In this document: piece after piece, positions 24,780-43,828 of the stretch | Layout of the letters: every line of letters begins with the position of its first letter | Numbering within the stretch: the stretch's first letter is position 1 | NCBI RefSeq assembly: GCF_008245225.1 | Contig: NZ_VTAW01000028.1 | Location: 1 to 44,523 of the forward strand | Direction of reading: 5' to 3' | DNA: 44,523 nt | Source: Natrialba swarupiae | Lineage (GTDB): Archaea > Halobacteriota > Halobacteria > Halobacteriales > Natrialbaceae | Made by a program: the position numbers and the translations under genes | Notes under the pieces: generated by a model | Told to the model about the DNA's origin: nothing | Database searches by the model: none | What the model saw: only the letters and a program-made list of their open reading frames with translations

Positions 24780-24853
24780 GGGCGCTTAGCTCAGTCTGGA
24801 CAGAGTGCTTGGCTTCGGACCAAGTTGCCGCGGGTTCAAATCCTGCAGCGCCC
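24780..24853 (+). tRNA. tRNA-Arg (anticodon TCG)
   Basis: A full cloverleaf can be drawn. The acceptor is GGGCGCT (24780-24786) with AGCGCCC (24847-24853). The D-arm is AGCTCAGTCTGGACAGAG. The anticodon stem CTTGG/CCAAG encloses loop CTTCGGA, giving anticodon TCG, which reads CGA arginine codons. The T-arm is CGGGTTCAAATCCTG. No intron and no encoded CCA. A TATA-like CTTATACG lies about 30 bp upstream. Its 3' end is the attachment site of the integrated element. Confidence 0.95.
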
Positions 24854-24855
24854 AT
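24842..24855 (+). repeat. attL core (tRNA-Arg 3' end)
   Basis: CCTGCAGCGCCCAT covers the 3' end of tRNA-Arg and two bases beyond. The same 14 bases recur exactly at 43667-43680. Integration leaves the tRNA intact, as expected for tRNA-targeting archaeal elements. Confidence 0.8.
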
Positions 24856-24873
24856 CCGAAATTTACTATCGCG

Positions 24874-26791: not shown

Positions 26792-27427
26792 TTAGTAGGA
26801 TTCCTCATCAAAGTATTCTACCCTCTTCACGTTGTTCTTCCCAATCATGACGGGAACACCCTGTGCAACTGCCCGGTTTAGAGTACAAATGTAGTACACA
26901 TCAAAACTGTCTGACGCCGACTCGTAGATGGAAATTGCTGGTTCTCCCACTTTCGGAACGTTGCCTCCGACGGAGACTTCGTAGGTTTGGTCCGTATCAC
27001 CATCGTAGTATTTGACACTATAGATGCGAGGTTCGCGCTTAACTTCACCACGCTGTTTTTCGACGAATTTTGCAGTAGCTTCAAACACTTCCTCGGCCTC
27101 GTCAGCATCCTCAGCATGGGGAATGAAGAACTCCGGCATTGTCGCCTTGTTTTTAGCCAGATGAAATAAATCCTCGTCCATATCCTTCCTCCGACTACTC
27201 GGAATGAGGCACGTTGATGGTTGGGTCGCAGCGTATAGTGGTGGCCGGAGGTCTCGCAGGTGGGCGTCGATGACGATGCAGTAGCGCTCAAGCCCTACGG
27301 TGTAGAACCGACCCGACACATCCTCATGTATGCCGATGACCAGCCCGTGTTCGCCGTGCCACTCAAAATCAGGGTCCAGTTCGTCGGGAATATCGATTCG
27401 TACTCGGTCACCAAGTCGGGGGTACAT
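26792..27427 (-). CDS. fused SH3-like and second unknown domain protein
   Basis: The 211-residue frame joins two parts. Residues 1-62 (GDRVRIDIPDELDPDFEWHG... ending HLRDLRPP) are paralogous to the complete 76-residue protein at 31136-31366, which ends at WRDLRPATL. Residues 83-211 (MDEDLFHLAKNKATMPEFF onward) look like a separate haloarchaeal protein. A Shine-Dalgarno GGAGGAAGG lies just before the internal ATG at 27181. This suggests two genes merged by loss of a stop, with a possible internal product. Function unknown; the first domain resembles small SH3/KOW-like barrels. Confidence 0.65.
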   Translation of the reverse strand: MYPRLGDRVRIDIPDELDPDFEWHGEHGLVIGIHEDVSGRFYTVGLERYCIVIDAHLRDLRPPLYAATQPSTCLIPSSRRKDMDEDLFHLAKNKATMPEFFIPHAEDADEAEEVFEATAKFVEKQRGEVKREPRIYSVKYYDGDTDQTYEVSVGGNVPKVGEPAISIYESASDSFDVYYICTLNRAVAQGVPVMIGKNNVKRVEYFDEESY

Positions 27428-28210: not shown

Positions 28211-29158
28211 TCAGTAGTCATCTAATTTAGTCGGAGTTGTTGAATCAGGGTTCAAAGGAGTGAAATCTGAGTTCAGCAACTTTCTTAGTTCATCTAAAGT
28301 ATGGAATCCTCGGAACCCTTTCTTATAGAGCTTGTCTGGTGACTGTCCATCGTCAATTTCTGATTCATAGAGAAATCGTGGCTTCTCCTGTTCCATAGCG
28401 AAGTTTGCCTGATGGATTGTACCACCGGTTTTTCCAGACGCTCCAATAATTACTGCCGTAGAAATACCAGAGGTAATTCGGTTCCTCTCAACAAATCTTC
28501 CGCGGTGAATACCAACTTTACTGCTTGTTTCGCTCACCAACGCCCCTTTTTTCTGAATTTGTTCACCTAGCTCTCGATTGCTTGCCGGAACGATTTTCTG
28601 GACTTCACCGGGTAAAACAGCAATTGTGTCACCATCGGCTTCTAGTGCCCCTCGGTGAGCAGCGGCGTCCACACCGTTAGCCAAACCGCTCACCACAGTC
28701 TTGTCCATCTCTACGAGTGCCCGGGCAATTTCACGAACAAACTCCAATCTATGCTCAGTTGCACTTCTTGTTCCGACAATCGCGACTCCATCACCAAGCA
28801 AGTTCACATCCCCATCAACATACAAGCAAAGTGGTGGGTCAGCAATCTTCCACAGTCGGTCTGGATATTCAGGAGCGTAAAACGGTACGAACCGGATTCC
28901 GTTTTTCTCGATATTTCTAATGTAATCACTGTAAAAACCTATATCGATAGTTGAAAGCTGACTTAGTATTTCAGACGATAATTCAGAATACTCATCGCCT
29001 TCAAGCTTCTTTATTTTAAGGTAATCCGTGAATATCTCTTGTGATACAACCTCTGGTCCTCTTTCTGTGAACAAGTCCACAAAGAGTTCTAAAACCTCTT
29101 TCGAATTGAGGTTTTGATTATCATTGAGGCCTGCTACGATTGGGTCAAGGTCGTTCAT
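28211..29158 (-). CDS. dprA: DprA/Smf-like SLOG-domain protein
   Basis: This 315-residue DprA-type Rossmann protein has GTRSATEHRLEFVREIARAL, VVSGLANGVDAAAHRGAL, TIAVLPGEVQKIVPASNREL and GRFVERNRITSGISTAVI, the standard Smf motif series (the GxG...S/RN-R-I signature). About 80 N-terminal residues are helical. In bacteria DprA loads RecA on incoming DNA; as SLOG-fold proteins, relatives are also used in nucleotide-based conflict systems. It is translated with the phosphoribosyltransferase upstream (14-bp overlap). In this element an immunity role is more likely than natural competence (inference). Confidence 0.85.
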   Translation of the reverse strand: MNDLDPIVAGLNDNQNLNSKEVLELFVDLFTERGPEVVSQEIFTDYLKIKKLEGDEYSELSSEILSQLSTIDIGFYSDYIRNIEKNGIRFVPFYAPEYPDRLWKIADPPLCLYVDGDVNLLGDGVAIVGTRSATEHRLEFVREIARALVEMDKTVVSGLANGVDAAAHRGALEADGDTIAVLPGEVQKIVPASNRELGEQIQKKGALVSETSSKVGIHRGRFVERNRITSGISTAVIIGASGKTGGTIHQANFAMEQEKPRFLYESEIDDGQSPDKLYKKGFRGFHTLDELRKLLNSDFTPLNPDSTTPTKLDDY

Positions 29159-29888
29159 CTTCGGGAATTTCGTCTTCTGGTATATACACTTCAGCGTCTA
29201 CTAGGTCATCAATATACTCAGTGCGTGCAATTGCGAGCCCGACTACCTTTGAAGCACCAGCTTCTTTGAGAGCCCTCGCGCAATTTTCGAGTGTTGCACC
29301 AGTTGTCACAATATCGTCGATAACGACTGCGAAAGGCGACGTTCTGAAATCCCGGATACATTCGATATTCCCTTCAACATTCACCCATCTTTCTTGAGCA
29401 CCAGTAAGGCTTCTTTGGGAATCATACTCTTCTGATTTGTGGAGGAACTCGTGAAGTGGTATACCCACACGTTCGCTTAACACCTTTCCGATTTTCGTCA
29501 TATGATTTGATTCAGCATCCTTTGTTCCGCGCGGCGGTGGAACAAGGATATCACAGTTTGAGAGATTTCCAAAATCTTCTAACCCCCATTGCAAAATCTC
29601 TGCCATTTCCTCAGTATACTCTCCCGTTTTCACATCATCAATAGCATTTGTTAGCTTATGGTCCCTGAATTCGTATACGTAGATTGTAGCTGTGAAGATT
29701 CTGTCTATATATTCAAACTCATTGTGGCCTTTCATACAGAAACTACAGATTCCAGTCATCTTAGCAAAATATGGCGAAATAGCGTGGCCGCATTTGCTAC
29801 ACTGGTGCTTTGGATGCAATATATCATTCCCTTGAAATTCGCCAATAGAGATAGTATTTTGAGGTACCGGATAATAAGTCGTCATCAT
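29145..29888 (-). CDS. ComF-like phosphoribosyltransferase with zinc ribbon
   Basis: The product has 247 residues. An N-terminal zinc ribbon (CSKCGHAISPYF and GICSFCMKG) precedes a type-I phosphoribosyltransferase domain with the PRPP signature VVIDDIVTTGATL (about residue 190) and PPPRGTKDAESNH upstream; this is the ComFC layout. The start at 29888 (tandem ATGATG) fits a TATA (AAAAATATG on the minus strand, near 29913). The overlap with dprA implies a single transcript. Substrate unknown; together with DprA it resembles paired PRTase-SLOG modules. Confidence 0.85.
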   Translation of the reverse strand: MMTTYYPVPQNTISIGEFQGNDILHPKHQCSKCGHAISPYFAKMTGICSFCMKGHNEFEYIDRIFTATIYVYEFRDHKLTNAIDDVKTGEYTEEMAEILQWGLEDFGNLSNCDILVPPPRGTKDAESNHMTKIGKVLSERVGIPLHEFLHKSEEYDSQRSLTGAQERWVNVEGNIECIRDFRTSPFAVVIDDIVTTGATLENCARALKEAGASKVVGLAIARTEYIDDLVDAEVYIPEDEIPEDERP

Positions 29889-30714: not shown

Positions 30715-31120
30715 ATGAAAATTGGTGAAGGTTTGCGTGACATCGTTCACGCTGTCGGTCGCAAAGACGGCGCAACATCAACTACTGAGATACAGCGAGT
30801 AACCGGGTTCGCCAATTTGTCTGTAAGATATTAATTCGATAAGCTTGAACGGCTTGGGCTCTTCGAGACCGACTACGATGCTTCCGCGATATCCACCGGA
30901 GTCGCCCCTCTCATAATCACTACCCCACTGACTTTGCGTACGAGGAAGTTCATAAAGGATTAACGGTTGAGGTCGAGCGGCGTCGAGCTACTATTGAACC
31001 CGTGGATAACGCAGAGCGACTCGATGAACTATAGCAGCGTGTTTCGATAAGAGAGGAGCAATGCACAATTTAGAGGTTTGAAGCACGGCTACGGGAACTG
31101 AGGCCGCCAATCGAGATGGG
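30715..31120 (+). pseudogene. decayed winged-helix regulator, paralogue of the gene at 36038-36460
   Basis: Reading from the ATG at 30715, IGEGLRDIVHAVGRKDGATS then TTEIQRVTGFANLSVRY matches the intact protein (ENSRDIIYVLEREDGTA; TTDIRRHTGLSNSAVRY). A TAA at 30832-30834 interrupts at the Arg position, the frame resumes with FDKLERLGLFETDYD, and a later frameshift restores TDFAYEEVHKGLTVE...ATIEPVDNAERLDEL against LTDLAREEIQTGLTAE. A second stop and a third follow. It is therefore a degraded copy with at least two stops and one frameshift. Confidence 0.75.
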
Positions 31121-31135
31121 CTCCAAAATAACAGA

Positions 31136-31366
31136 TTAGAGTGTGGCCGGTCGGAGGTCTCGCCATCGGAAGTCCATAGTGGACCCGTGGTCAAACTCCA
31201 CGCGGTAAAGAACACTATCACGCTCGTCTCCGGTCTCGGTCCCTGCATCGTCTTTGACCACGCTTTTGACCACACCGTGCTTCCCGTGGAATTCATCGAA
31301 GTCCGGGTCCGTTTCATCAGGAATGTCAACGCGTACCCGGTCGCCTTCAGTAAATCTCTGACTCAC
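31136..31366 (-). CDS. small SH3/KOW-like barrel protein, third gene of the restriction operon
   Basis: The product has 76 residues. GDRVRVDIPDETDPDFDEFHGKHG.. is a short beta-rich domain with an acidic loop, ending RWRDLRPATL. It is paralogous to the N-terminal part of the protein at 26792-27427. The start is GTG at 31366, overlapping the end of the TBP gene by 4 bp (GTGA), so it is translated with that operon. Such small barrels often bind nucleic acid or ribosomes, but nothing in the sequence shows a partner. Confidence 0.7.
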   Translation of the reverse strand: MSQRFTEGDRVRVDIPDETDPDFDEFHGKHGVVKSVVKDDAGTETGDERDSVLYRVEFDHGSTMDFRWRDLRPATL

Positions 31367-31917
31367 GGCTTGAGTACCTCGTCGACACGGTTTCGAATGT
31401 AATCGAACGCTTCTTCGGCAGCATCAAGAGTTGGTGCTCCCGTCACCACGCACTTGCCCGACCCGAACAGCAGAATCACACACGGATGCTCCGCTGGGCG
31501 ATGCACTAAACCCGGAAATTGCTCGGGTTCGTATTCGCTCTGCTCTAGCCCAAGAGCAATTGATAGCCTATTCAAATCTATAGTGTATTCGAGGTCGGCC
31601 GTACAGACTATGTTATTCACCCTGAATGAGTCATCTTCTGGACGGTCGAGTATGCCTTTATCATTTAGTAATGACAAGAATTGGTCTTTTGTGTCGAAGA
31701 GCTCCGATTCTGAATCCGCACCTGTGATGATGTACTTTCCTGTCCGATACACCGTGATGAGGGGACCGGATTCGTTGAGACGAACGTATAATCCGTGGTA
31801 GTTGTCCGGGTTATACGTCACTTCATATGCCTCTAAATCGTTTGATACTACAGCTACGTCTACTTCGATACCGAGAGTCCCAGTTCCGACGATATTCTCT
31901 ATTTGGACGCTTGTCAT
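31363..31917 (-). CDS. tbp: divergent TATA-box-binding protein (TBP)
   Basis: The 184 residues are two TBP repeats. Repeat 2 is canonical (NNIVCTADL, LSIALGLEQSEYEPEQFPGLV, VILLFGSGKCVVTGAPT). Repeat 1 is divergent (IENIVGTGTLG, YEVTYNPDNYHGLYVRL, ITVYRTGKYIITGA). The four DNA-intercalating Phe of TBP are F134 and F151 in repeat 2 but Y40 and Y57 in repeat 1. It should bind TATA-like DNA with TFB, perhaps with changed specificity or bending (inference). It overlaps the restriction enzyme gene by 4 bp and shares its promoter, an unusual place for a general transcription factor. Confidence 0.85.
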   Translation of the reverse strand: MTSVQIENIVGTGTLGIEVDVAVVSNDLEAYEVTYNPDNYHGLYVRLNESGPLITVYRTGKYIITGADSESELFDTKDQFLSLLNDKGILDRPEDDSFRVNNIVCTADLEYTIDLNRLSIALGLEQSEYEPEQFPGLVHRPAEHPCVILLFGSGKCVVTGAPTLDAAEEAFDYIRNRVDEVLKP

Positions 31918-34900
31918 CGAACCTTGCTTTTCAGTGGGTCCTCTGGGACGAGAATTCTGTCTTCAACAAGCCTCCGGTGTTCCTCGCTCAACTCGAATAA
32001 TTCGTAGACAGCTTCGTGTAACTCGTCCTCCACAGCTTGTAAACGGTTACCTGCCCCATCAGTCGTCTCGACAGCCTGCTGGTGCGCGTCCAACACGGCT
32101 TCTAGTCCTTCCCGGGTTCTCGGGTATTCTGCGTCCAGAAGCTCCGTGAGCGTAGTTATGTTAAGAGCGTTCAGGAGGTCGTAGAAGGATTCAGCGAGGT
32201 CCTCATCGTTAAGGTCGATTGATTGGTGGACATTGAGTCGAATGGTTGAACCGTCGATGTTTGGTTGTAGGTCCGCGTCATTCGCTCCGTCTGAGTCAGG
32301 AATATGAGAAACATATGCTGTACGAGTTAACCCGACTCGGTCCACGTTGGCTGTATCCAGTAGCTTTGACGGGTCACTGAGGAGATTCTCGGCTTCTCTG
32401 TACTCTCTGATGAGGTCCTGCATTCGGCGGGCCGTCGAGTCAATACTTTCCACGAGGTCGTCATCTACGTCGTCATCGTCCGGGTCCGGGATAGGAATGT
32501 CTCCGACGTACTCGGATTTGTATCGAAGATAGTTTCCTCGATACGTGGCTGCGTTCCGTCTGATGTAGAACTGTGCTAAGTCGCTATTCAGAACCCCCGC
32601 CAGATACCACGCGTGGTCCTCGCTTTCAGGCGAGATATAGTACGTTGTGTCCAGACAATAGAACTCCCCGCCTTCATCGACCCAGTAGTTGTTGTAGTAC
32701 GCGATATCCGGTGTAACGATTTTTGTCTGTTCGAACAGGTCGGGGTCTTTCGCTTTGTCGAGTGCCCAGTAGTCTTCGTTCTGCTCTCGGACACAGTATC
32801 TGTCTTCGAGTTCGTCCCGGTTGTCACCATCGTTGTAGTACTCCACAGTGTTCGGGTAGTCGTCAATATCAATTCCGGGTGGAGTGTAGACAACGTAGTC
32901 ACCGTCCCACAAGTCCTCCCATCGTTTCACCTGCTTTCCTCCGAGGATTGGATGAACGAGTTCTTGCTCGATGTCGTACTCGTCGATAGTGTCTTCCTCA
33001 ACGAGGAATACGGGGTTCTTCCCCGTTCGCAGTCCTCGTTCGATTTTGTTCCCGTGCCCGTAGGACCGGAGTTCAGGGCCACGGTCCTCCAGCCAGTTTA
33101 ACACCTCTTGCTCGTCTGCAGGCGCGAACTGCCAGTCAGAATCCGAGACAGCATCCGAGTGAACGGGGTAGGACTGGAGCGGAGGTTGGTCCCCCCATGA
33201 AATCGTGTCCGGTACAGGAATGTCTTCCTCTTCAACTAGACTCGGAATGTCAGGAGACTCTCCCCCCCATTCAACCGGGAGAGCTAGTGCGAGCAGGTCT
33301 ACAACCCGATGGTTCTGCTCTTTCCCAAGGTCGCCAATCCCGTTCCCGTTCCCTGAGTCCCATCCTGAGATAGCATCTGACTCTATCCAGTCCTCCATGG
33401 ATTCGTTGACCGCGACGTACGAGAATCGGTAGTCGTCGACAACGAAGTCTTCCGCAGACCGGATTCCCTCTCGGTTCAGCCCTTCCATCACCATGATTAT
33501 CGGATACGTGGTAGCGTGTGCGAACACGTCCACATCTCCGATGTTCACCATTTCTCCAATTCGATACCGCTGAGGAATCAACTCCCGGGCTCGCTCCCCG
33601 TAGCGGCTGTCAAGGAACTGGTTCGACGTAATGATGCCTAGGTTCCCTCCCTCTCGGAGCCAGTCGCTCGCCTTCTCGATAAACAAGAGGTACAGGTCGT
33701 AATTGTGGTAGGCTGAGTAGTATTCGTTGTAATCCTCTTTCGCCGGGCCTTCCGCGATATTCTGAATCCTAACGTACGGCGGGTTCATCACCACATATCC
33801 GTAGTCCCCCCGATTTTTCGCGCTGTCAGCCTGTCTTCGCTCTTGCTCATACTGACGCAAGAGTGCATCACTGAACGTCGCTGTCACCGAGGTCTGTGTC
33901 TGACTGCGTAAAGAGTCCGTCTGGTAGACGTTGAACCGGTCCAGAGAGTAGTCCGGGTTCTCCTCTTTGACCTCCTTATACAGGTCGATAACTTGGAATA
34001 GGAGGTTCATTTCTGTAATATGGCAGGCGAAGGGATTGATGTCGAACCCCCATAATCGGTCCTGCATGATGTCTACTGCTTCCTCCGGTGGAACGTTTCT
34101 ATCCTTTAGCCTTTCCAGCAGCCGACCAGCAGCACGAACGAGGAATGTCCCACTACCACAAGCAGGGTCGACTAAATCGTGTTCGGGTTGGTCAATCGGC
34201 TGGTCAGACGTGTACCCGACGCGGTCGAGTATGAAGTCAACGACGGATGTTGGTGTATAGAATTCCCCCAGTTCTTTTCGTTCCTCGGGTGGGAGGTGAC
34301 GTTCATACAGGTGACCGAGCACGTCTCGGTCCACATTTTCGAAGTCGTAGTGATTCAGGTGCCAGAACGTTTTCTTGACGACATCATCCAAATCTTCGTC
34401 GTCAGCGTTCAACTCCCAGTCGAAAATCTGCCGGGAATAGAGACGGTCGTAAATCTCGCTCAATTCCTCAGACGCGACATCGAACAGGTCCACATAGTTT
34501 CGGTCAACATACCTTGCAAAATCGTCCCAGAACGCGAAGAAATCAGTCACACCCCCGTCGCTAATCATCTCCTCGGTTAGGTCCTTGTCTTCAGCAATCC
34601 GGATTAACAGAATCTTATTTATCTGGACGTAGATACTCTCTCGGCAGAAAACACGCTTATTCTCATCCGCATCGTTCTCTTGTCGGTTCGACAGGCGTAC
34701 CCACGTCTCGTAGTCAGAATGAAACGCCCGGTACTGCTCGTAGTCATCACGGAGTTCCGCAAGCTGCGATTCCAACTCTGCAATTTCCGTGTCATCTCCA
34801 TGACCCTGTTCTTCTAGCGTTTCAATCTGTGCCTGCAAATCGTCGGCCTTCTCTCTGAACTCTTCGTACCGTTCCTGATATTCGTCGAAAGCACGAACGG

Positions 34901-35552
34901 TGTATGGTGTCCAGTAATCATCCAACACCGTCGTCAGGGTACTCAGTAGATTGTCGAACCCTTCGTCATCAGAAACATCCTGCCGGTCGCTAATTTCAAA
35001 GTCATCGTATCGCTCTGGGTTTACGATATCGGATTTACGGAGCCGGGTTAACTGGCTAATAGAATCTAGTTCTTCCGATGGGATTTCGTCCGTGAGCGAC
35101 TCCCCTACCTCTACATTCCGAACGCGCTCGAAATTAATGGTGGCCAGTAATTCGCCACTCACTCCGTACCGCGTCTCGTCCGCATCCTCTTCGTCACACC
35201 GTCGATAGAGTAGCAGCTTGTCGAAATTAGTGGCGATGAGGTATCGTGTGTATGGACTATCAGACGCGTACTCGAACGCTTGGTCTATTCCAACCTCGAC
35301 GTCCCGGTCCCGACGCTTTGCCTCGATGATTATGACTGGGTGGCGCTCATCGTCGTAGAACCGAACGTCATTCCGGTCGTCCTCTTGGGCGTAGTCTGAC
35401 TCGTCCCATCCCAGCGTTTCGTTGCAAAAAAGAAGACGCGCAAACCGTGGCGTCAGGTCCAGTTCGTTTCGGTCTCCCTCCTCAATTTCGTTGTAAAAAT
35501 CGTTGTACGCACCGATGATGGAGGTTGTAAAGTCCGAAGTGACCGTTGACAT
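31914..35552 (-). CDS. single-chain Eco57I/type IIG restriction-methylase
   Basis: The product has 1212 residues. The N-terminal nuclease domain has a PD-(D/E)xK-type core (DVRFYDDERHPVIIIEAKRR, about 64-78). After an acidic coiled coil comes an N6-adenine methylase: motif I DLVDPACGSGTFLVRAA (about 464) and motif IV VVMNPPYVRIQN (about 587). The C-terminal third is a TaqI-like target recognition region (ILGGKQVKRWED; AGVLNSDLAQFYIRRNAATY). All catalytic residues are present, so a combined endonuclease-methyltransferase is expected; a methylase-dependent phage-defence mode of the PglX type is the alternative. A TATA (TCTTTAACATTT, about 35570-35581) makes the mRNA leaderless. Confidence 0.9.
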   Translation of the reverse strand: MSTVTSDFTTSIIGAYNDFYNEIEEGDRNELDLTPRFARLLFCNETLGWDESDYAQEDDRNDVRFYDDERHPVIIIEAKRRDRDVEVGIDQAFEYASDSPYTRYLIATNFDKLLLYRRCDEEDADETRYGVSGELLATINFERVRNVEVGESLTDEIPSEELDSISQLTRLRKSDIVNPERYDDFEISDRQDVSDDEGFDNLLSTLTTVLDDYWTPYTVRAFDEYQERYEEFREKADDLQAQIETLEEQGHGDDTEIAELESQLAELRDDYEQYRAFHSDYETWVRLSNRQENDADENKRVFCRESIYVQINKILLIRIAEDKDLTEEMISDGGVTDFFAFWDDFARYVDRNYVDLFDVASEELSEIYDRLYSRQIFDWELNADDEDLDDVVKKTFWHLNHYDFENVDRDVLGHLYERHLPPEERKELGEFYTPTSVVDFILDRVGYTSDQPIDQPEHDLVDPACGSGTFLVRAAGRLLERLKDRNVPPEEAVDIMQDRLWGFDINPFACHITEMNLLFQVIDLYKEVKEENPDYSLDRFNVYQTDSLRSQTQTSVTATFSDALLRQYEQERRQADSAKNRGDYGYVVMNPPYVRIQNIAEGPAKEDYNEYYSAYHNYDLYLLFIEKASDWLREGGNLGIITSNQFLDSRYGERARELIPQRYRIGEMVNIGDVDVFAHATTYPIIMVMEGLNREGIRSAEDFVVDDYRFSYVAVNESMEDWIESDAISGWDSGNGNGIGDLGKEQNHRVVDLLALALPVEWGGESPDIPSLVEEEDIPVPDTISWGDQPPLQSYPVHSDAVSDSDWQFAPADEQEVLNWLEDRGPELRSYGHGNKIERGLRTGKNPVFLVEEDTIDEYDIEQELVHPILGGKQVKRWEDLWDGDYVVYTPPGIDIDDYPNTVEYYNDGDNRDELEDRYCVREQNEDYWALDKAKDPDLFEQTKIVTPDIAYYNNYWVDEGGEFYCLDTTYYISPESEDHAWYLAGVLNSDLAQFYIRRNAATYRGNYLRYKSEYVGDIPIPDPDDDDVDDDLVESIDSTARRMQDLIREYREAENLLSDPSKLLDTANVDRVGLTRTAYVSHIPDSDGANDADLQPNIDGSTIRLNVHQSIDLNDEDLAESFYDLLNALNITTLTELLDAEYPRTREGLEAVLDAHQQAVETTDGAGNRLQAVEDELHEAVYELFELSEEHRRLVEDRILVPEDPLKSKVR

Positions 35553-35691
35553 ACCTGCATTCTCTCGCCCCCTAAATGTTAAAGATACGTTTTAACGGCA
35601 ATTCGACTTTCTCCAGCGCGTACTCTGGAAGTTCGCCGTATTCGGCGAAGCACTTATAAATTCTACGACTGCTACGAATCGATGAACGCCC

Positions 35692-36037: not shown

Positions 36038-36460
36038 CTAACCTCGGAGACGTTTCCGAGTATCCTTCAATACCTCGATGACATCATCCTGCGTCGCATC
36101 GAGCGCATTCAGGAGATGGCGGAGTTGGTTCATTTCGTCTTCGAGCTTCTGGATTCGCTCATGGTTGTCTGCGGGTTCGATGGGGGCCCTTCGCTGCTCG
36201 GATTCTGCGGTCAACCCTGTCTGAATCTCCTCCCGGGCAAGGTCTGTCAACGACGCGACTGTCAGTGGGGCGACGCCCTCGGGAGTTGCGTCAGGGTCGT
36301 GTTCCGTCTCTACCAAGCCGAGGTCTTCGAGTTTACCAAACCGGTATCGAACAGCGGAGTTTGATAGCCCCGTGTGTCGCCGAATATCTGTTGTGGTGGC
36401 TGTACCGTCCTCACGTTCGAGCACGTAGATAATGTCACGAGAGTTTTCATCAATCCTCAT
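36038..36460 (-). CDS. winged-helix regulator with C-terminal coiled coil
   Basis: The product has 140 residues. MRIDENSRDIIYVLEREDG then a winged helix (TTTDIRRHTGLSNSAVRYRFGKLEDLGLVET, helix-turn-helix with recognition helix NSAVRYRFGKL) and a wing; the second half ends in a coiled coil (HERIQKLEDEMNQLRHLLNAL) likely to dimerise it. A TATA (ATATTAAATC on the minus strand, 36478-36487) fixes the start at 36460. It is the intact paralogue of the pseudogene at 30715 and may control the neighbouring restriction operon (inference from location). Confidence 0.8.
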   Translation of the reverse strand: MRIDENSRDIIYVLEREDGTATTTDIRRHTGLSNSAVRYRFGKLEDLGLVETEHDPDATPEGVAPLTVASLTDLAREEIQTGLTAESEQRRAPIEPADNHERIQKLEDEMNQLRHLLNALDATQDDVIEVLKDTRKRLRG

Positions 36461-36647
36461 GTTTGTTAGTGGCGAGTGATTTAATATTGGCTTTGGGGTC
36501 AAAAAACAAAGGCGTTAGAGGGCAGTAGCCGTCGGCAGAAAACCGTTCGGAGTAACCTCAACACCCGTAGACAGTCAGGGCTCCTGACACCCTATACATA
36601 ACAGAGGGGTATACAAGACCTCTTAGAAGAGAGGAAGTGTTAATCAA

Positions 36648-37347: not shown

Positions 37348-39075
37348 TCAGACGTTATCCATACTCCAAACTTTGCAAATTATCTCTGCCATCTTTTCGC
37401 TACGGTCTCGGATTTGCTCAAGTCCCCACTCATCGTACTCTTCTACGATGGCCTGTGTCATTAAGAAGTCAGTGTTATTCTGATAAATGTTGCATTTCTG
37501 TTCAAACGGATTGTCCGAAGCGGTTTGATTCAATCTATTCTGCAGAAGAGTAAGATTCCCGATTCGCTTTTTGTACTCGTCAAATTCCTCTTCTGAACAG
37601 TTCAGATACTGTTTCCACGGACTGTACTTTTCGGCAGTCCACACCCGCTGTGGGGCAACATGTTCAATGTCAACAGTAGACCGGTCTCCAACCGATTTTT
37701 CACGCCCTCCTGTTCGCATGTAATGTTCCTCTTCAATCCTGTCAAGAATATATTTCGTAAAGTCGTTATTTTTGAACTCCCTGCTCACCACTCGCTCCAT
37801 AATAATGGTATCATTCGGCGCTCTCTTTTCAGCCATACGACGGAGGTATTCGTTAGGGTCTTCACCTCTTTCCATCATTGAACATGTCCTAGACCAGAAA
37901 CGGTCGCGACTAGTGTTCGAATCGCGTCCGGCTATTTTGTCCCGGGTGTTGAGTACTTCTAAGATATTGAGCGCCTCAAGAACATCATCTGCACTCTCAT
38001 AGTCATTTATAATCTTCAGAAGGAGCGTCCGAATCCGGTCATTCTTTATTTGCGTGGACTCTAATTTTGAATTTAGTTCTTGAAGTTTATTTGCTCGAAA
38101 ATTCTCGTTAACCTCACAATTAAATATATCTACATAAGTCCTCGACTTCTTGAGCATATCTTCGAGCATTTCCTCCACTGTTAGACCTTCCTCGGCCAAG
38201 CCTTCGTTCAAAAGCTCATCCACGTAGTCGTAGAGTTTGTTCTTGGACACGTTGTCCTTTGTCTCGGGGCGAGAAATAGACATGAAATAGTGGGAGAAGA
38301 AGCGGTAATTCTGAGTCAGTTCCGGGCGAATGACCGTCATTATTTCTTCCCAGAGATGTTTAACTCGGTCCGCGTCTATCTCGCTATTTTCATTGGCCTC
38401 CATGAACAACCGATTTTTAACAAGGTCGACAGCACCAAGGTCAAGTCCCTTATCGTTTAGACTCTCGAATAACCGAAAAGCAGAAACTTCACTGCCACAC
38501 TCAATCTGAACGAGATAAACAGAGTTTATTAGGGCATCATATATATCCTGAACTTTTTCTGTATCGTGCTTCTCTAATTTCGAATAGTAATATTCGTAAG
38601 CATTTTTCAGTTCCGAGTCGCTAACGAGGTCTGCGTTTCCTTTGAGGATTCGATTAAAATCGCCGTTATGAAACTTGTTGAGTCGTAACTTCTGATGACG
38701 TTCACCCGTTGTACGACTTTGGATTTGTAGAAATCCATCAACTAATTCAGAGAGTTTTTCAAATTCCGAATCTTCTTCAAATCTATCTCGTATTGCACAT
38801 AAGAAAATTGAAATTGTTGTAAGTCGTTGTTGGCCGTCTACTAACTCCAACGCTTTCAAATCGTCATCTTTGTTTTCGATTACAACGATAGAACCTAAGA
38901 AGTGATTATCTCGTTCGCGGGTGAGGGCATACACGTCATCCCACAACTCGGACCACTGGTCCTTTCCCCACGAGTATTCTCGCTGATAATCCGGTACTCG
39001 GATTTGATGTGACCCTTCGAGCACCTCACTGATGTCGTAGTCATCAGCCCCGAGGTTAAACCCTGATGTTGACAT
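37348..39075 (-). CDS. GmrSD-type DUF262/DUF1524 nuclease
   Basis: This 575-residue single-chain fusion has an N-terminal DUF262 (GmrS-like) domain with RVPDYQREYSWGKDQWSELWDDV and the hallmark LVDGQQRLTT (about 78-84). The C-terminal DUF1524 (GmrD-like, HNH/His-Me) part has VDIEHVAPQ (about 468) and GNLTLLQNRLNQ (about 505). The E. coli GmrSD enzyme cuts DNA with glucosylated hydroxymethylcytosine and is classed as type IV restriction; specificity here is unknown. Both active-site regions are intact. The start at 39075 has a TATA (ATTTTATGTGG on the minus strand, 39098-39108) about 26 bp upstream. Confidence 0.88.
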   Translation of the reverse strand: MSTSGFNLGADDYDISEVLEGSHQIRVPDYQREYSWGKDQWSELWDDVYALTRERDNHFLGSIVVIENKDDDLKALELVDGQQRLTTISIFLCAIRDRFEEDSEFEKLSELVDGFLQIQSRTTGERHQKLRLNKFHNGDFNRILKGNADLVSDSELKNAYEYYYSKLEKHDTEKVQDIYDALINSVYLVQIECGSEVSAFRLFESLNDKGLDLGAVDLVKNRLFMEANENSEIDADRVKHLWEEIMTVIRPELTQNYRFFSHYFMSISRPETKDNVSKNKLYDYVDELLNEGLAEEGLTVEEMLEDMLKKSRTYVDIFNCEVNENFRANKLQELNSKLESTQIKNDRIRTLLLKIINDYESADDVLEALNILEVLNTRDKIAGRDSNTSRDRFWSRTCSMMERGEDPNEYLRRMAEKRAPNDTIIMERVVSREFKNNDFTKYILDRIEEEHYMRTGGREKSVGDRSTVDIEHVAPQRVWTAEKYSPWKQYLNCSEEEFDEYKKRIGNLTLLQNRLNQTASDNPFEQKCNIYQNNTDFLMTQAIVEEYDEWGLEQIRDRSEKMAEIICKVWSMDNV

Positions 39076-39201
39076 TATACGCTGAAATAGTATCAAGACC
39101 ACATAAAATCTATCCAATACTTATTTCACTGATTCTCTGTTTGAATTATATCGCCGCTTAAAATGTCACTTGAACTTCTTCTCGGAGCCTCACAAACTTA
39201 A

Positions 39202-41366: not shown

Positions 41367-41698
41367 CACTTGACAAATTTTGTCAAGTGGACCAATTTGA
41401 ACGGGCATAGGTTGACAAATGTCGTCAACCCACTGGAGGCATATTTGTCAAGCTAAGGCGTTCCTTTATATACCTCACCCTCTCCATACCCCATTTACTA
41501 TAAAGCGAGTAATCATTTCTATCAATTAAGTGATTGTCAGTCTGGCACACTGTGACACACAACATATATATACTACCAACCCACTTGTACATGTAGTTAG
41601 CGTTGAGTATATTATTAGCTAAGTAGTGTAGTGTAGCGAAACGGAGTTAGCTAATAAGCTGGAGGTTGACCCGGAGGGTTGACGACATTTGTCAACCT
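41367..41698. repeat. iteron-like inverted-repeat region, possible origin or partition site
   Basis: CACTTGACAAA-t-TTTGTCAAGTG (41367-41389) is a perfect 11-bp-arm palindrome. A 23-bp sequence at 41409-41431, itself reading TTGAC...GTCAA, recurs exactly in inverse orientation at 41676-41698. Extra half-sites are at 41444-41451 (TTTGTCAA) and 41662-41670. Inside lies a smaller exact inverted repeat, TATTAGCTAA (41613-41622) and TTAGCTAATA (41647-41656). The interval is AT-rich with stretches such as TATATATA, and 41328-41806 has no gene. This is the layout of a replication origin, centromere or a heavily controlled promoter. Confidence 0.55.
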
Positions 41699-42466: not shown

Positions 42467-43543
42467 ATGAGACAAGAACTGGAAGACATCGCCCCACAGG
42501 ACGCACTGGACGACTATCTCGACGACCGAGAAGTTGAGGGGGCCGCGGAGTGGACCCTATACGCACACAAGAGTCGACTCGGGCACTTCGTCGAGTGGTG
42601 CGAAGAGAAGGGCATCGAATCGATGGCCGACCTCCGGTCGTCCCACATGCGCAAGTACCGCAAGTGGCGGAAAGACGAGGGAGACATCAAGAAGGTGACG
42701 CTGAAGACGCAGATGGATACCTTGCGGGTGTTCGTCAAGTGGTGCGAGGACTTCAACCATGCACCGGAAGAACTCCACACTTCGGTCCGGTCACCTAAGC
42801 TCGCCAAAGGGGACAACGTCCGCGAGGAGACCATCGACGGGGACATCTGCATGGACATCCTCGGCCAGCTACGCAAGTACCACTACGCGACCCGGAAACA
42901 CATCGTCTTCGAGCTAATCTGGCATACGACGATGCGCCGCGGCGCTATCCACTCGCTGGACGTCGACGACTTCGACCGAGAGGACCAGCAATTAAAGATT
43001 CGACACCGCCCGAAGGAGGGGACGACGCTCAAGAAGAAGGGAGAATCCGAGCGCATCATCAATCTCTCCGACAAGATGACGGAGGTCCTCGCGGACTGGG
43101 TTGACGACCAGCGTCCGGATGTCGTCGATGAATACGACCGCCGCCCGCTCATCGCGACGGAGCATGGCCGAGCCCACCTGACGACAATCTCTTCGGATAT
43201 CTACTGGGTGACTCGCCCCGGGTTCCGCGGAGAAGACTGCGGTTGCGGGGATGAGTGCCCCGCGACCTGCGCGAACAACGCCTACGCCTGCGAAGACAGC
43301 GTCTCACCGCACACCGTCCGCTCGGCCAGCATCACCTACCATCTGGACCAAGGGTGGCTCATCGACCTCGTCGCCGACCGCGCCGACAACACCGCCGACG
43401 TCATCAAGAAGCACTATGACGCGGCGAACGAGGAAGAACAGGCCCAACGCCGGAAGGAATTCATGGGCCTCCTCGAAGAGGAGGATGAGGAAGACAAAGA
43501 CGACGAGGGAGAAGACGGCGCACCAACCGCAACCGCCGATTAG
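42467..43543 (+). CDS. tyrosine recombinase (integrase) of the element
   Basis: The product has 358 residues. An N-terminal SAM-like core-binding domain (LYAHKSRLGHFVEWCEEKGI; TLKTQMDTLRVFVKWC) precedes the catalytic domain with Arg in TTMRRGAIHSL (about 156), H-x-x-R in SPHTVRSASITY (about 282-285) and the nucleophile in VIKKHYDAA (about 317). A Cys-rich insert DCGCGDECPATCANNAYAC may bind zinc. The tail is acidic, as in haloarchaea. It is intact, not split by the att site, and its stop lies 123 bp before the right att repeat, as expected for the enzyme that integrated this element. Confidence 0.92.
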   Translation: MRQELEDIAPQDALDDYLDDREVEGAAEWTLYAHKSRLGHFVEWCEEKGIESMADLRSSHMRKYRKWRKDEGDIKKVTLKTQMDTLRVFVKWCEDFNHAPEELHTSVRSPKLAKGDNVREETIDGDICMDILGQLRKYHYATRKHIVFELIWHTTMRRGAIHSLDVDDFDREDQQLKIRHRPKEGTTLKKKGESERIINLSDKMTEVLADWVDDQRPDVVDEYDRRPLIATEHGRAHLTTISSDIYWVTRPGFRGEDCGCGDECPATCANNAYACEDSVSPHTVRSASITYHLDQGWLIDLVADRADNTADVIKKHYDAANEEEQAQRRKEFMGLLEEEDEEDKDDEGEDGAPTATAD

Positions 43544-43680: not shown

Positions 43681-43802
43681 GTTTCTGTCGCGAACAAAAT
43701 CGTGAGCGACAGAGACTGCATCGCGAAGGGTTTGAACGAGACGAGACGCAGCGCGAACGTCGTGAGCGACCGTCTCGGCGTGGTTCACAATCCTGCAGCG
43801 CC
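43681..43802. repeat. palindromic cassette ending in a second tRNA-3'-end copy
   Basis: GTTTCTGTCGC (43681-43691) pairs with GCGACAGAGAC (43706-43716). A second, imperfect stem links TGCATCGCGAAGGGTTTGAAC to GTGGTTCACAATCCTGCAGC, both like tRNA T-arm/3'-end sequence in opposite orientations. The element GCGAAC..GTGAGCGAC occurs twice. The cassette ends in CCTGCAGCGCCAAT (43792-43805), 13 of 14 bases of att. It may be a relic of older integration or a structured tail. Confidence 0.5.
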
Positions 43803-43805
43803 AAT
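43792..43805 (+). repeat. outer imperfect att copy
   Basis: CCTGCAGCGCCAAT differs by one base from the att core and continues the tRNA T-arm leftward (GGTTCACAAT). With 24874-24887 it makes a second pair of att-like copies, one on each side. Confidence 0.5.
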
Positions 43806-43828
43806 CACAGATTTTGTAAAACTGTTCT

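What the first reader, a model, noticed from the sequence alone, without database searches (positions are those of the whole stretch)
31136..35552. Restriction-methylase, divergent TBP and SH3-like protein in one overlapping operon
Three genes overlap by 4 bp each (ATGA, GTGA) and share a single TATA promoter: a 1212-residue Eco57I-type enzyme, a full-length two-repeat TATA-binding protein and a small barrel protein. A general transcription factor translated together with a restriction enzyme, inside an integrated element, is not part of any defence system I know. The TBP could retarget transcription to element promoters, act as an immunity/antidote timing switch, or sense or sequester DNA during infection. 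The winged-helix gene at 36038 next door and its dead copy at 30715 may belong to the same module.
Basis: partly seen in the sequence, partly recalled or inferred. Interest (0 to 1): 0.85.

Follow-up and report, generated by a model that had tools for sequence, protein, structure and literature searches.

The report
Transcription factor travelling with restriction systems
Salt-loving archaea carry a separate branch of the basic promoter-binding protein TBP that sits beside anti-virus DNA-methylation systems of many unrelated types and appears to move between genomes together with them, which suggests an unrecognised transcription-level partner of archaeal immunity.

Summary
The three genes are real: an Eco57I/type IIG-like methylase (31914-35552), a two-repeat TBP (31363-31917) and a 76-aa barrel protein (31136-31366), overlapping by 4 bp each, in a ~19-kb island at tRNA-Arg. 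The exact trio is rare: one other genome of 391 has all three genes, with the barrel gene elsewhere. The TBP is the important part. It belongs to a distinct haloarchaeal clade ("dTBP"). In a sample chosen by sequence alone, 90 of 100 dTBPs lie beside DNA-methylation defence genes (type I and IIG R-M, DISARM-like, BREX); 1 of 64 conventional haloarchaeal TBPs does. Annotated plasmids and viruses add DUF499 and Eco29kI-type loci, and a Halobacterium NRC-1 plasmid TBP belongs to the clade. The dTBP tree follows system type (29 changes; 47-58 shuffled), not host family. dTBP is facultative: a methylase 80% identical to the window's lacks it. The TFB-contacting stirrup is invariant in 94 dTBPs; repeat-1 intercalating Phe residues are mostly Tyr. 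Best reading: a dedicated transcription factor using host TFB to tune its linked defence operon; function is untested. No description was found in the held library; TOTE/TALON is the nearest precedent. The winged-helix gene is not part of the module.

The parts
31914..35552 (-). Type IIG-like restriction-methyltransferase (1212 aa): N6-MTase core with NPPY motif, TaqI-like specificity domain, N-terminal region with an IIIEAK PD-(D/E)xK-like motif
   Evidence: nuclease motif read from the sequence only
31363..31917 (-). dTBP: divergent two-repeat TATA-binding protein (184 aa), translationally coupled (ATGA) to the methylase
31136..31366 (-). 76-aa SH3/Tudor-like barrel protein (GTGA overlap); relatives recur near dTBP/methylase operons in other haloarchaea
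35553..35600 (-). probable core promoter region of the operon (TTTAAC box about 30 bp upstream of the methylase start)
   Evidence: sequence; compared with L005; not proved
24818..24864 (+). 3' end of tRNA-Arg, probable attachment site of the island
43768..43814 (+). imperfect repeat of the tRNA-Arg 3' end, probable far attachment site
42467..43543 (+). tyrosine recombinase/integrase of the island

Best explanation
The TBP is one member of a haloarchaeal TBP clade (dTBP) that is a facultative, mobile accessory of methylation-based defence systems. Shown: linkage to many unrelated system types, frequent gene overlap at the 3' end of the system operon, co-segregation with system type rather than host, an intact TFB-contacting surface, and altered repeat-1 DNA-intercalating residues. 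Inferred: dTBP binds TATA-like DNA with changed preference in the repeat-1 half-site, recruits a host TFB, and so acts as a dedicated promoter-selective general transcription factor. It most likely tunes transcription of its own defence operon (activating it, or capping it as the product accumulates), playing the part that controller proteins play in bacterial restriction systems. In the window it would control the type IIG enzyme and the barrel protein translated with it.
For: Linkage: 90/100 dTBPs against 1/64 conventional haloarchaeal TBPs have a recognised defence gene within 5.5 kb and 4 genes (Fisher 2e-33, inflated by relatedness); after clustering dTBPs at 70% identity, 40 of 47 clusters. 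Placement: 51 of 100 lie directly 3' of a system gene on the same strand, 29 of these overlapping it. The dTBP tree needs 29 changes of system type against 47-58 shuffled, while host family shows no fit (51 against 42-54). Two related haloviruses carry dTBP at an equivalent locus with different R-M systems (type IIG in HRTV-9; N4C-MTase plus Eco29kI in HJTV-2). Repeat-2 stirrup residues E128 and E130-Q133 are 100% kept in 94 dTBPs; repeat-1 Phe43 is Tyr in 72% and Phe60 is Tyr in 89%, while conventional TBPs are 100% Phe at both. TBP fold TM 0.85-0.90. Only one TFB-like gene near any dTBP, so host TFBs would be used; the window genome has about eight TFBs and one conventional TBP. Two TBPs with an extra N-terminal domain, winged-helix-like by eye, occur in the set. 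Diversity of enzyme partners argues for a general role rather than an enzyme subunit.
Against: No promoter element specific to dTBP-bearing operons was found. The conserved AGTCTAAGNAAAGACTA element of DISARM-like operons is also present where dTBP is absent or decayed, so it belongs to the AbrB-DrmMI operon. Many homologous systems lack a detected dTBP (9 of 19 HsdM loci; most loci of the window's methylase family), so it is dispensable. In Halobacterium NRC-1 deletion of tbpC, probably this gene, gave no apparent phenotype (PMC2121645), although the linked methylase there is interrupted by an insertion element. No binding or expression data exist.
Confidence: 0.48

Rival explanations
1. dTBP acts on the invader or on the host programme rather than on its own operon: it occupies viral or host promoters when expressed, either blocking viral transcription or shifting host transcription during infection, as a transcriptional arm of the defence system.
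For: TFB-binding surface kept and repeat-1 DNA contacts changed; the general partner range fits an effector independent of the enzyme type; loci with two dTBPs occur; haloviruses also carry dTBP. From literature: overexpressing or deleting TbpD of H. salinarum shifts many host transcripts (PMC2121645, PMC2880973), but TbpD has not been shown to be a dTBP.
Against: In this set dTBP was found almost only in the methylation context, not as an independent defence gene; no target promoters are known.
Confidence: 0.2
2. dTBP is a DNA-binding or DNA-bending subunit or sensor of the defence complex itself, in the way a TBP may serve in TOTE conflict systems, helping the enzymes to load on or recognise unmodified DNA.
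For: 4-bp overlaps and 3' position suggest coupled translation; dTBP subclades match system types, as expected for protein-protein co-evolution; TOTE/TALON precedent (PMC12458937).
Against: Partners include unrelated enzymes, and close homologues exist without dTBP; the strictest conservation is on the TFB-contacting face.
Confidence: 0.2
3. dTBP compensates for adenine methylation: it recognises promoters whose TATA region carries m6A, keeping transcription going in a methylated genome.
For: The common denominator of the linked systems is a DNA methyltransferase; the altered residues contact one half of the TATA box.
Against: Linked systems are likely to differ in recognition sequence, and at least one is annotated as an N4-cytosine system; overlap of methylation sites with TATA boxes should be rare.
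Confidence: 0.05
4. dTBP is a passenger: extra TBP genes accumulate in defence islands and on plasmids, and adjacency has no functional meaning.
For: dTBP is dispensable and sometimes decayed (remnant in L251, none detected in L243 and L250; start remnant in L263).
Against: Conventional TBPs show no such linkage (1/64); frequent gene overlaps; co-segregation with system type; full conservation of the functional surface.
Confidence: 0.07

Closest known systems
TOTE conflict systems and TALON (TPR, OB, TBP, effector; Aravind et al. 2022 as cited in PMC12458937)
   Same: A TBP encoded in a defence operon together with DNA-targeting effectors.
   Different: TALON is reported largely from Chloroflexota, with a TPR-cold-shock (OB) protein; no such partner was recognised next to the haloarchaeal dTBPs, whose partners are R-M, BREX, DISARM-like and DUF499 loci.
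Plasmid-borne TBPs of Halobacterium salinarum NRC-1 (tbpA-D on pNRC100)
   Same: The TBP at pNRC100 111987-112532 is a dTBP with the same 4-bp overlap to a helicase-related gene, behind a split methyltransferase. It is probably TbpC, inferred from the name 'TATA-box-binding protein C' given to related dTBPs.
   Different: Studied as general transcription factors (PMC2121645); the word 'methylase' does not occur in that text.
Controller (C) proteins of bacterial type II restriction-modification systems
   Same: Small DNA-binding regulator co-encoded with R-M genes (general knowledge).
   Different: C proteins are HTH repressor/activators; dTBP has the fold of a general transcription factor and is not limited to one R-M type.
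BREX type 5, DISARM class 1/ARMADA-like and type I R-M of haloarchaea
   Same: These are among the systems with which dTBP is associated.
   Different: Descriptions searched here do not list a TBP component: the 2026 BREX survey PMC12839542 has 0 occurrences of TBP/TATA, and the archaeal R-M survey PMC10609329 has 0.
TBP-family gene in HF1-like haloviruses and proviruses (Hdep-prov1, PMC7230728; HRTV-9; HJTV-2)
   Same: HRTV-9 and HJTV-2 carry dTBP-like proteins next to R-M genes.
   Different: Noted only as an extra gene in the provirus paper, with no link to R-M drawn in the passages read.

Membership tests
TATA-binding protein (TBP) family | Two TBP repeats and saddle fold | tested here: met
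   PF00352 1.4e-42, two stretches; NF001593 199 bits against cut-off 181; TM 0.88-0.90
TATA-binding protein (TBP) family | TFB-contacting stirrup of repeat 2 (EPEQF) | tested here: met
   EPEQ 100% and F 97% conserved in 94 dTBPs
TATA-binding protein (TBP) family | Phe pairs that intercalate in DNA in both repeats | tested here: not met
   Repeat 2 Phe kept; repeat 1 Phe replaced by Tyr in 72% and 89% of dTBPs and at both positions in the window protein. It is a TBP with altered repeat 1.
TATA-binding protein (TBP) family | Supports transcription initiation | not testable with these tools
   needs in vitro transcription
Type IIG restriction-modification enzyme | Eco57I-type N6-MTase core and target-recognition domain in one chain | tested here: met
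   Eco57I and TaqI_C above cut-off; PADLOC hits include REase_MTase_IIG models
Type IIG restriction-modification enzyme | Nuclease domain in the same chain | tested here: inconclusive
   IIIEAK motif in the N-terminus by eye; no nuclease HMM in the window protein, HSDR_N_2 in other dTBP-linked enzymes
BREX | PglZ and BrxC with PglX | tested here: not met
   No PglZ/BrxC match among the window proteins scanned; PglX models far below cut-off. Met at other dTBP loci, not here.
DISARM | DrmA/DrmB (and DrmMI/DrmD for class 1) | tested here: not met
   No such match listed among the best for the window proteins scanned; DrmMI plus DrmD-like at other dTBP loci, where DrmA/B were not examined
TOTE/TALON conflict system | TPR and OB/cold-shock component with TBP and effector | tested here: inconclusive
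   No TPR or OB family among the window proteins scanned; neighbours at other loci were classified only by similarity to selected defence proteins
C-protein-controlled R-M | Autoregulation of the operon by the co-encoded regulator | not testable with these tools
   no expression data; no dTBP-specific operator found

The most novel reading that the evidence does not exclude
A general transcription factor has been recruited as a portable, enzyme-independent partner of methylation-based immunity in an archaeal class: dTBPs form pre-initiation complexes with host TFBs at selected promoters (own operon, host or virus), giving archaeal R-M, BREX and DISARM-like systems a transcriptional control or effector layer built from a basal factor. 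It would also explain part of the puzzling TBP multiplicity of haloarchaea as defence-linked, horizontally moved genes.
Probability: 0.55. Interest if true: 0.9.

Novelty: new variant of a known kind. Interest (0 to 1): 0.8.

Why it matters
Basal transcription factors are normally treated as housekeeping. Here a whole TBP clade behaves like a defence-system gene: it is linked to methylation systems of many unrelated types, its tree follows those systems rather than the host, it is sometimes lost, and it is carried by plasmids and viruses. If confirmed it would reveal a transcription-factor layer in archaeal immunity, give a concrete role to some of the extra TBPs of haloarchaea (a question open since the NRC-1 genome), and supply a marker gene for finding new methylation-based defence systems in archaea. 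It is testable now in H. salinarum or Haloferax.

Tried and rejected
Trio as a fixed unit: rejected. Winged-helix gene 36038-36502 and its dead copy as module parts: rejected, no homologue near other dTBPs. dTBP-specific operator: the inverted repeat AGTCTAAGNAAAGACTA in front of DISARM-like operons looked promising, but 17 of 17 occurrences precede AbrB-DrmMI, including loci where dTBP is absent or decayed; a box TTAC.ATTTT.ATGG-like shared by four IIG_980 operons is too few to interpret. Dedicated TFB partner: only one TFB-like gene near a dTBP. BREX or DISARM membership of the window locus: rejected. Same linkage for TBPs outside Halobacteria: 0 of 20 loci examined, a small sample. The first estimate of how many systems lack dTBP used a strict cut-off (1e-30); divergent TBPs near IIG_980 relatives show that presence was undercounted. 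The identity of the NRC-1 gene as tbpC could not be verified (one search found no text with the locus tags). The supplement of PMC2121645 and the original TOTE paper were not read.

Full report
1. Observation. The three ORFs, their lengths and both 4-bp overlaps are as stated. The 1212-aa protein has Eco57I, N6_Mtase and TaqI_C domains; the 184-aa protein is a two-repeat TBP (1.4e-42); the 76-aa protein matches no family. AlphaFold gives a TBP saddle (pLDDT 92.3; TM 0.88-0.90 to solved TBPs) and a small SH3/Tudor-like barrel (pLDDT 81.2; best PDB match PetP, E 6.5e-4). The locus lies in a lower-GC island of about 19 kb between tRNA-Arg (24780-24854) and an imperfect 47-nt repeat of its 3' end at 43768-43814, with an integrase at 42467-43543. 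Apart from this gene the genome has one TBP and about eight TFB genes.

2. The TBP is a separate clade. Relatives by sequence and a maximum-likelihood tree place the window TBP in a group of 19 (support 100/99) apart from the housekeeping TBPs of haloarchaea and other archaea. In 391 Halobacteria genomes about 65 genomes carry strong members (read from the score list, no sharp cut-off). I took the regions around about 100 TBPs chosen only by similarity to the window TBP, including conventional ones as controls.

3. Linkage. Gene neighbourhoods were classified with representatives, several of them checked against Pfam and PADLOC. Of 100 dTBPs, 90 lie within 5.5 kb and four genes of a recognised defence gene: DISARM-like (DrmMI plus BrxHII/DrmD helicase), type I R-M, BREX (BrxC, PglZ, PglX) and several type IIG-like or other methylase families. 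Some of the other ten also have one: L155 corresponds to a record in which the TBP is next to a DUF1156 protein and a DUF499 ATPase. Among 64 conventional haloarchaeal TBPs, one has a weak helicase match; among 20 TBPs from other lineages, none. After clustering dTBPs at 70% identity, 40 of 47 clusters keep the linkage. In 51 cases the dTBP directly follows a system gene on the same strand, 29 of them overlapping it; others are divergent, convergent, upstream or not immediately adjacent. Gene calls were made by a simple script of mine, so gaps and starts are approximate.

4. Named records agree. Halobacterium NRC-1 pNRC100/pNRC200 carry methyltransferase (split by ISH27), helicase and TBP with the same 4-bp overlap; this TBP scores as a dTBP, and the two other full-length TBPs I read from these plasmids have the conventional residues. 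Others: Haloarcula halophila with BrxC, methylase, TBP, PglZ and BrxL; Halanaeroarchaeum and Halococcus with BREX-5 PglX/PglZ; Halobacterium sp. DL1 with type I R-M; Halorubrum virus HRTV-9 with a type IIG enzyme; Haloarcula virus HJTV-2 with N4-cytosine methylase and Eco29kI endonuclease. The two viruses carry their dTBP at an equivalent locus (ribonucleotide reductase on one side, tRNA-Thr and integrase on the other) with different R-M systems.

5. Co-segregation and facultativity. On a tree of 114 TBPs the system label of 90 dTBPs needs 29 changes against 47-58 in 200 shuffles; host family needs 51 against 42-54, and genus shows no fit either. Single systems do not always carry dTBP: 10 of 19 HsdM loci do (one search compared by hand). 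Of 17 occurrences of the DISARM-like operon motif, 11 have a dTBP on the same contig, three cannot be judged because of contig breaks, and three lack an intact one, one of these with a remnant. The window methylase has an 80%-identical homologue with neither TBP nor barrel gene. In the >=66% IIG_980 clade six of seven have the dTBP and the seventh keeps a remnant of its start. These counts use a strict threshold; some relatives counted as lacking carry more divergent TBPs.

6. Residues. Compared with 46 conventional TBPs, 94 dTBPs keep the repeat-2 stirrup E-Y-E-P-E-Q-F-P-G (97-100% per position; E128 and E130-Q133 at 100%) and most minor-groove residues, but replace the repeat-1 intercalating Phe by Tyr (72% and 89%) and Leu58 by Thr (80%). 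From known TBP-TF(II)B-DNA structures (such as 1AIS; general knowledge) the repeat-2 stirrup contacts TFB, so TFB recruitment is probably kept while the repeat-1 half of the DNA site is read differently. No dedicated TFB gene accompanies dTBPs except one possible case.

7. Mechanism. The combination of general partner range, dispensability, 3' operon position or own divergent promoter, kept TFB surface and TBPs with an extra N-terminal domain (judged winged-helix-like by eye, no Pfam match) is best explained by a dedicated transcription factor, most simply a controller of the linked operon. A direct role against viral or host promoters, and a structural role inside the defence complex, remain open. 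I found no dTBP-specific promoter element, and no expression or binding data could be tested.

8. Known or new. Searches of the held library found no description of this association. Two reviews where it would be expected contain no mention of TBP or TATA. The nearest precedent is TOTE/TALON, cited in PMC12458937. In NRC-1, tbpC (probably the dTBP) is dispensable with no apparent phenotype under standard growth (PMC2121645). The library lacks most subscription journals, so novelty is 'not found', not 'proved'.

9. Barrel protein. SH3-like relatives (52-70% identical) occur in about 20 of the fetched loci, mostly near these operons, upstream, downstream or convergent, and a partial copy follows a window-type methylase without dTBP in L246. 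It is a recurrent neighbour of haloarchaeal methylation defence, not specific to dTBP.

Noticed in passing
window 28211-29888 (-): DprA-like and ComF/phosphoribosyltransferase-like pair matching ShosA (8e-60) and ShosT (1e-12): a probable ShosTA-type defence pair in the same island.
   Followed up: partly
window 37348-39117 (-): GmrSD-like protein (GmrSD_N/GmrSD_C) with strong PADLOC HEC-06/Orf5 matches: a further probable defence gene in the island.
   Followed up: no
window 26792-27427 (-): 211-aa protein whose N-terminal part (27242-27412) is a 46% identical paralogue of the 76-aa barrel protein.
   Followed up: no
L226-L242: Conserved inverted repeat AGTCTAAGNAAAGACTA, usually running into a TATA box, in front of AbrB-DrmMI operons: 17 of 17 occurrences in 391 genomes, none of the reversed control pattern; a probable operator.
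   Followed up: yes
L135:7377-8201 and L156:9921-10754: TBPs with an extra N-terminal domain of about 85 aa (winged-helix-like by eye, no Pfam match).
   Followed up: partly
L255 (HRTV-9) and L262 (HJTV-2): Related haloviruses carry different restriction-modification systems plus a dTBP at an equivalent place beside ribonucleotide reductase, tRNA-Thr and integrase.
   Followed up: partly
L174 and L175 (one replicon): Two BREX loci with identical dTBPs about 298 kb apart on one contig.
   Followed up: no
window 41409-41698: 28-nt inverted repeat (93%) with 234 nt between the arms, inside the island.
   Followed up: no
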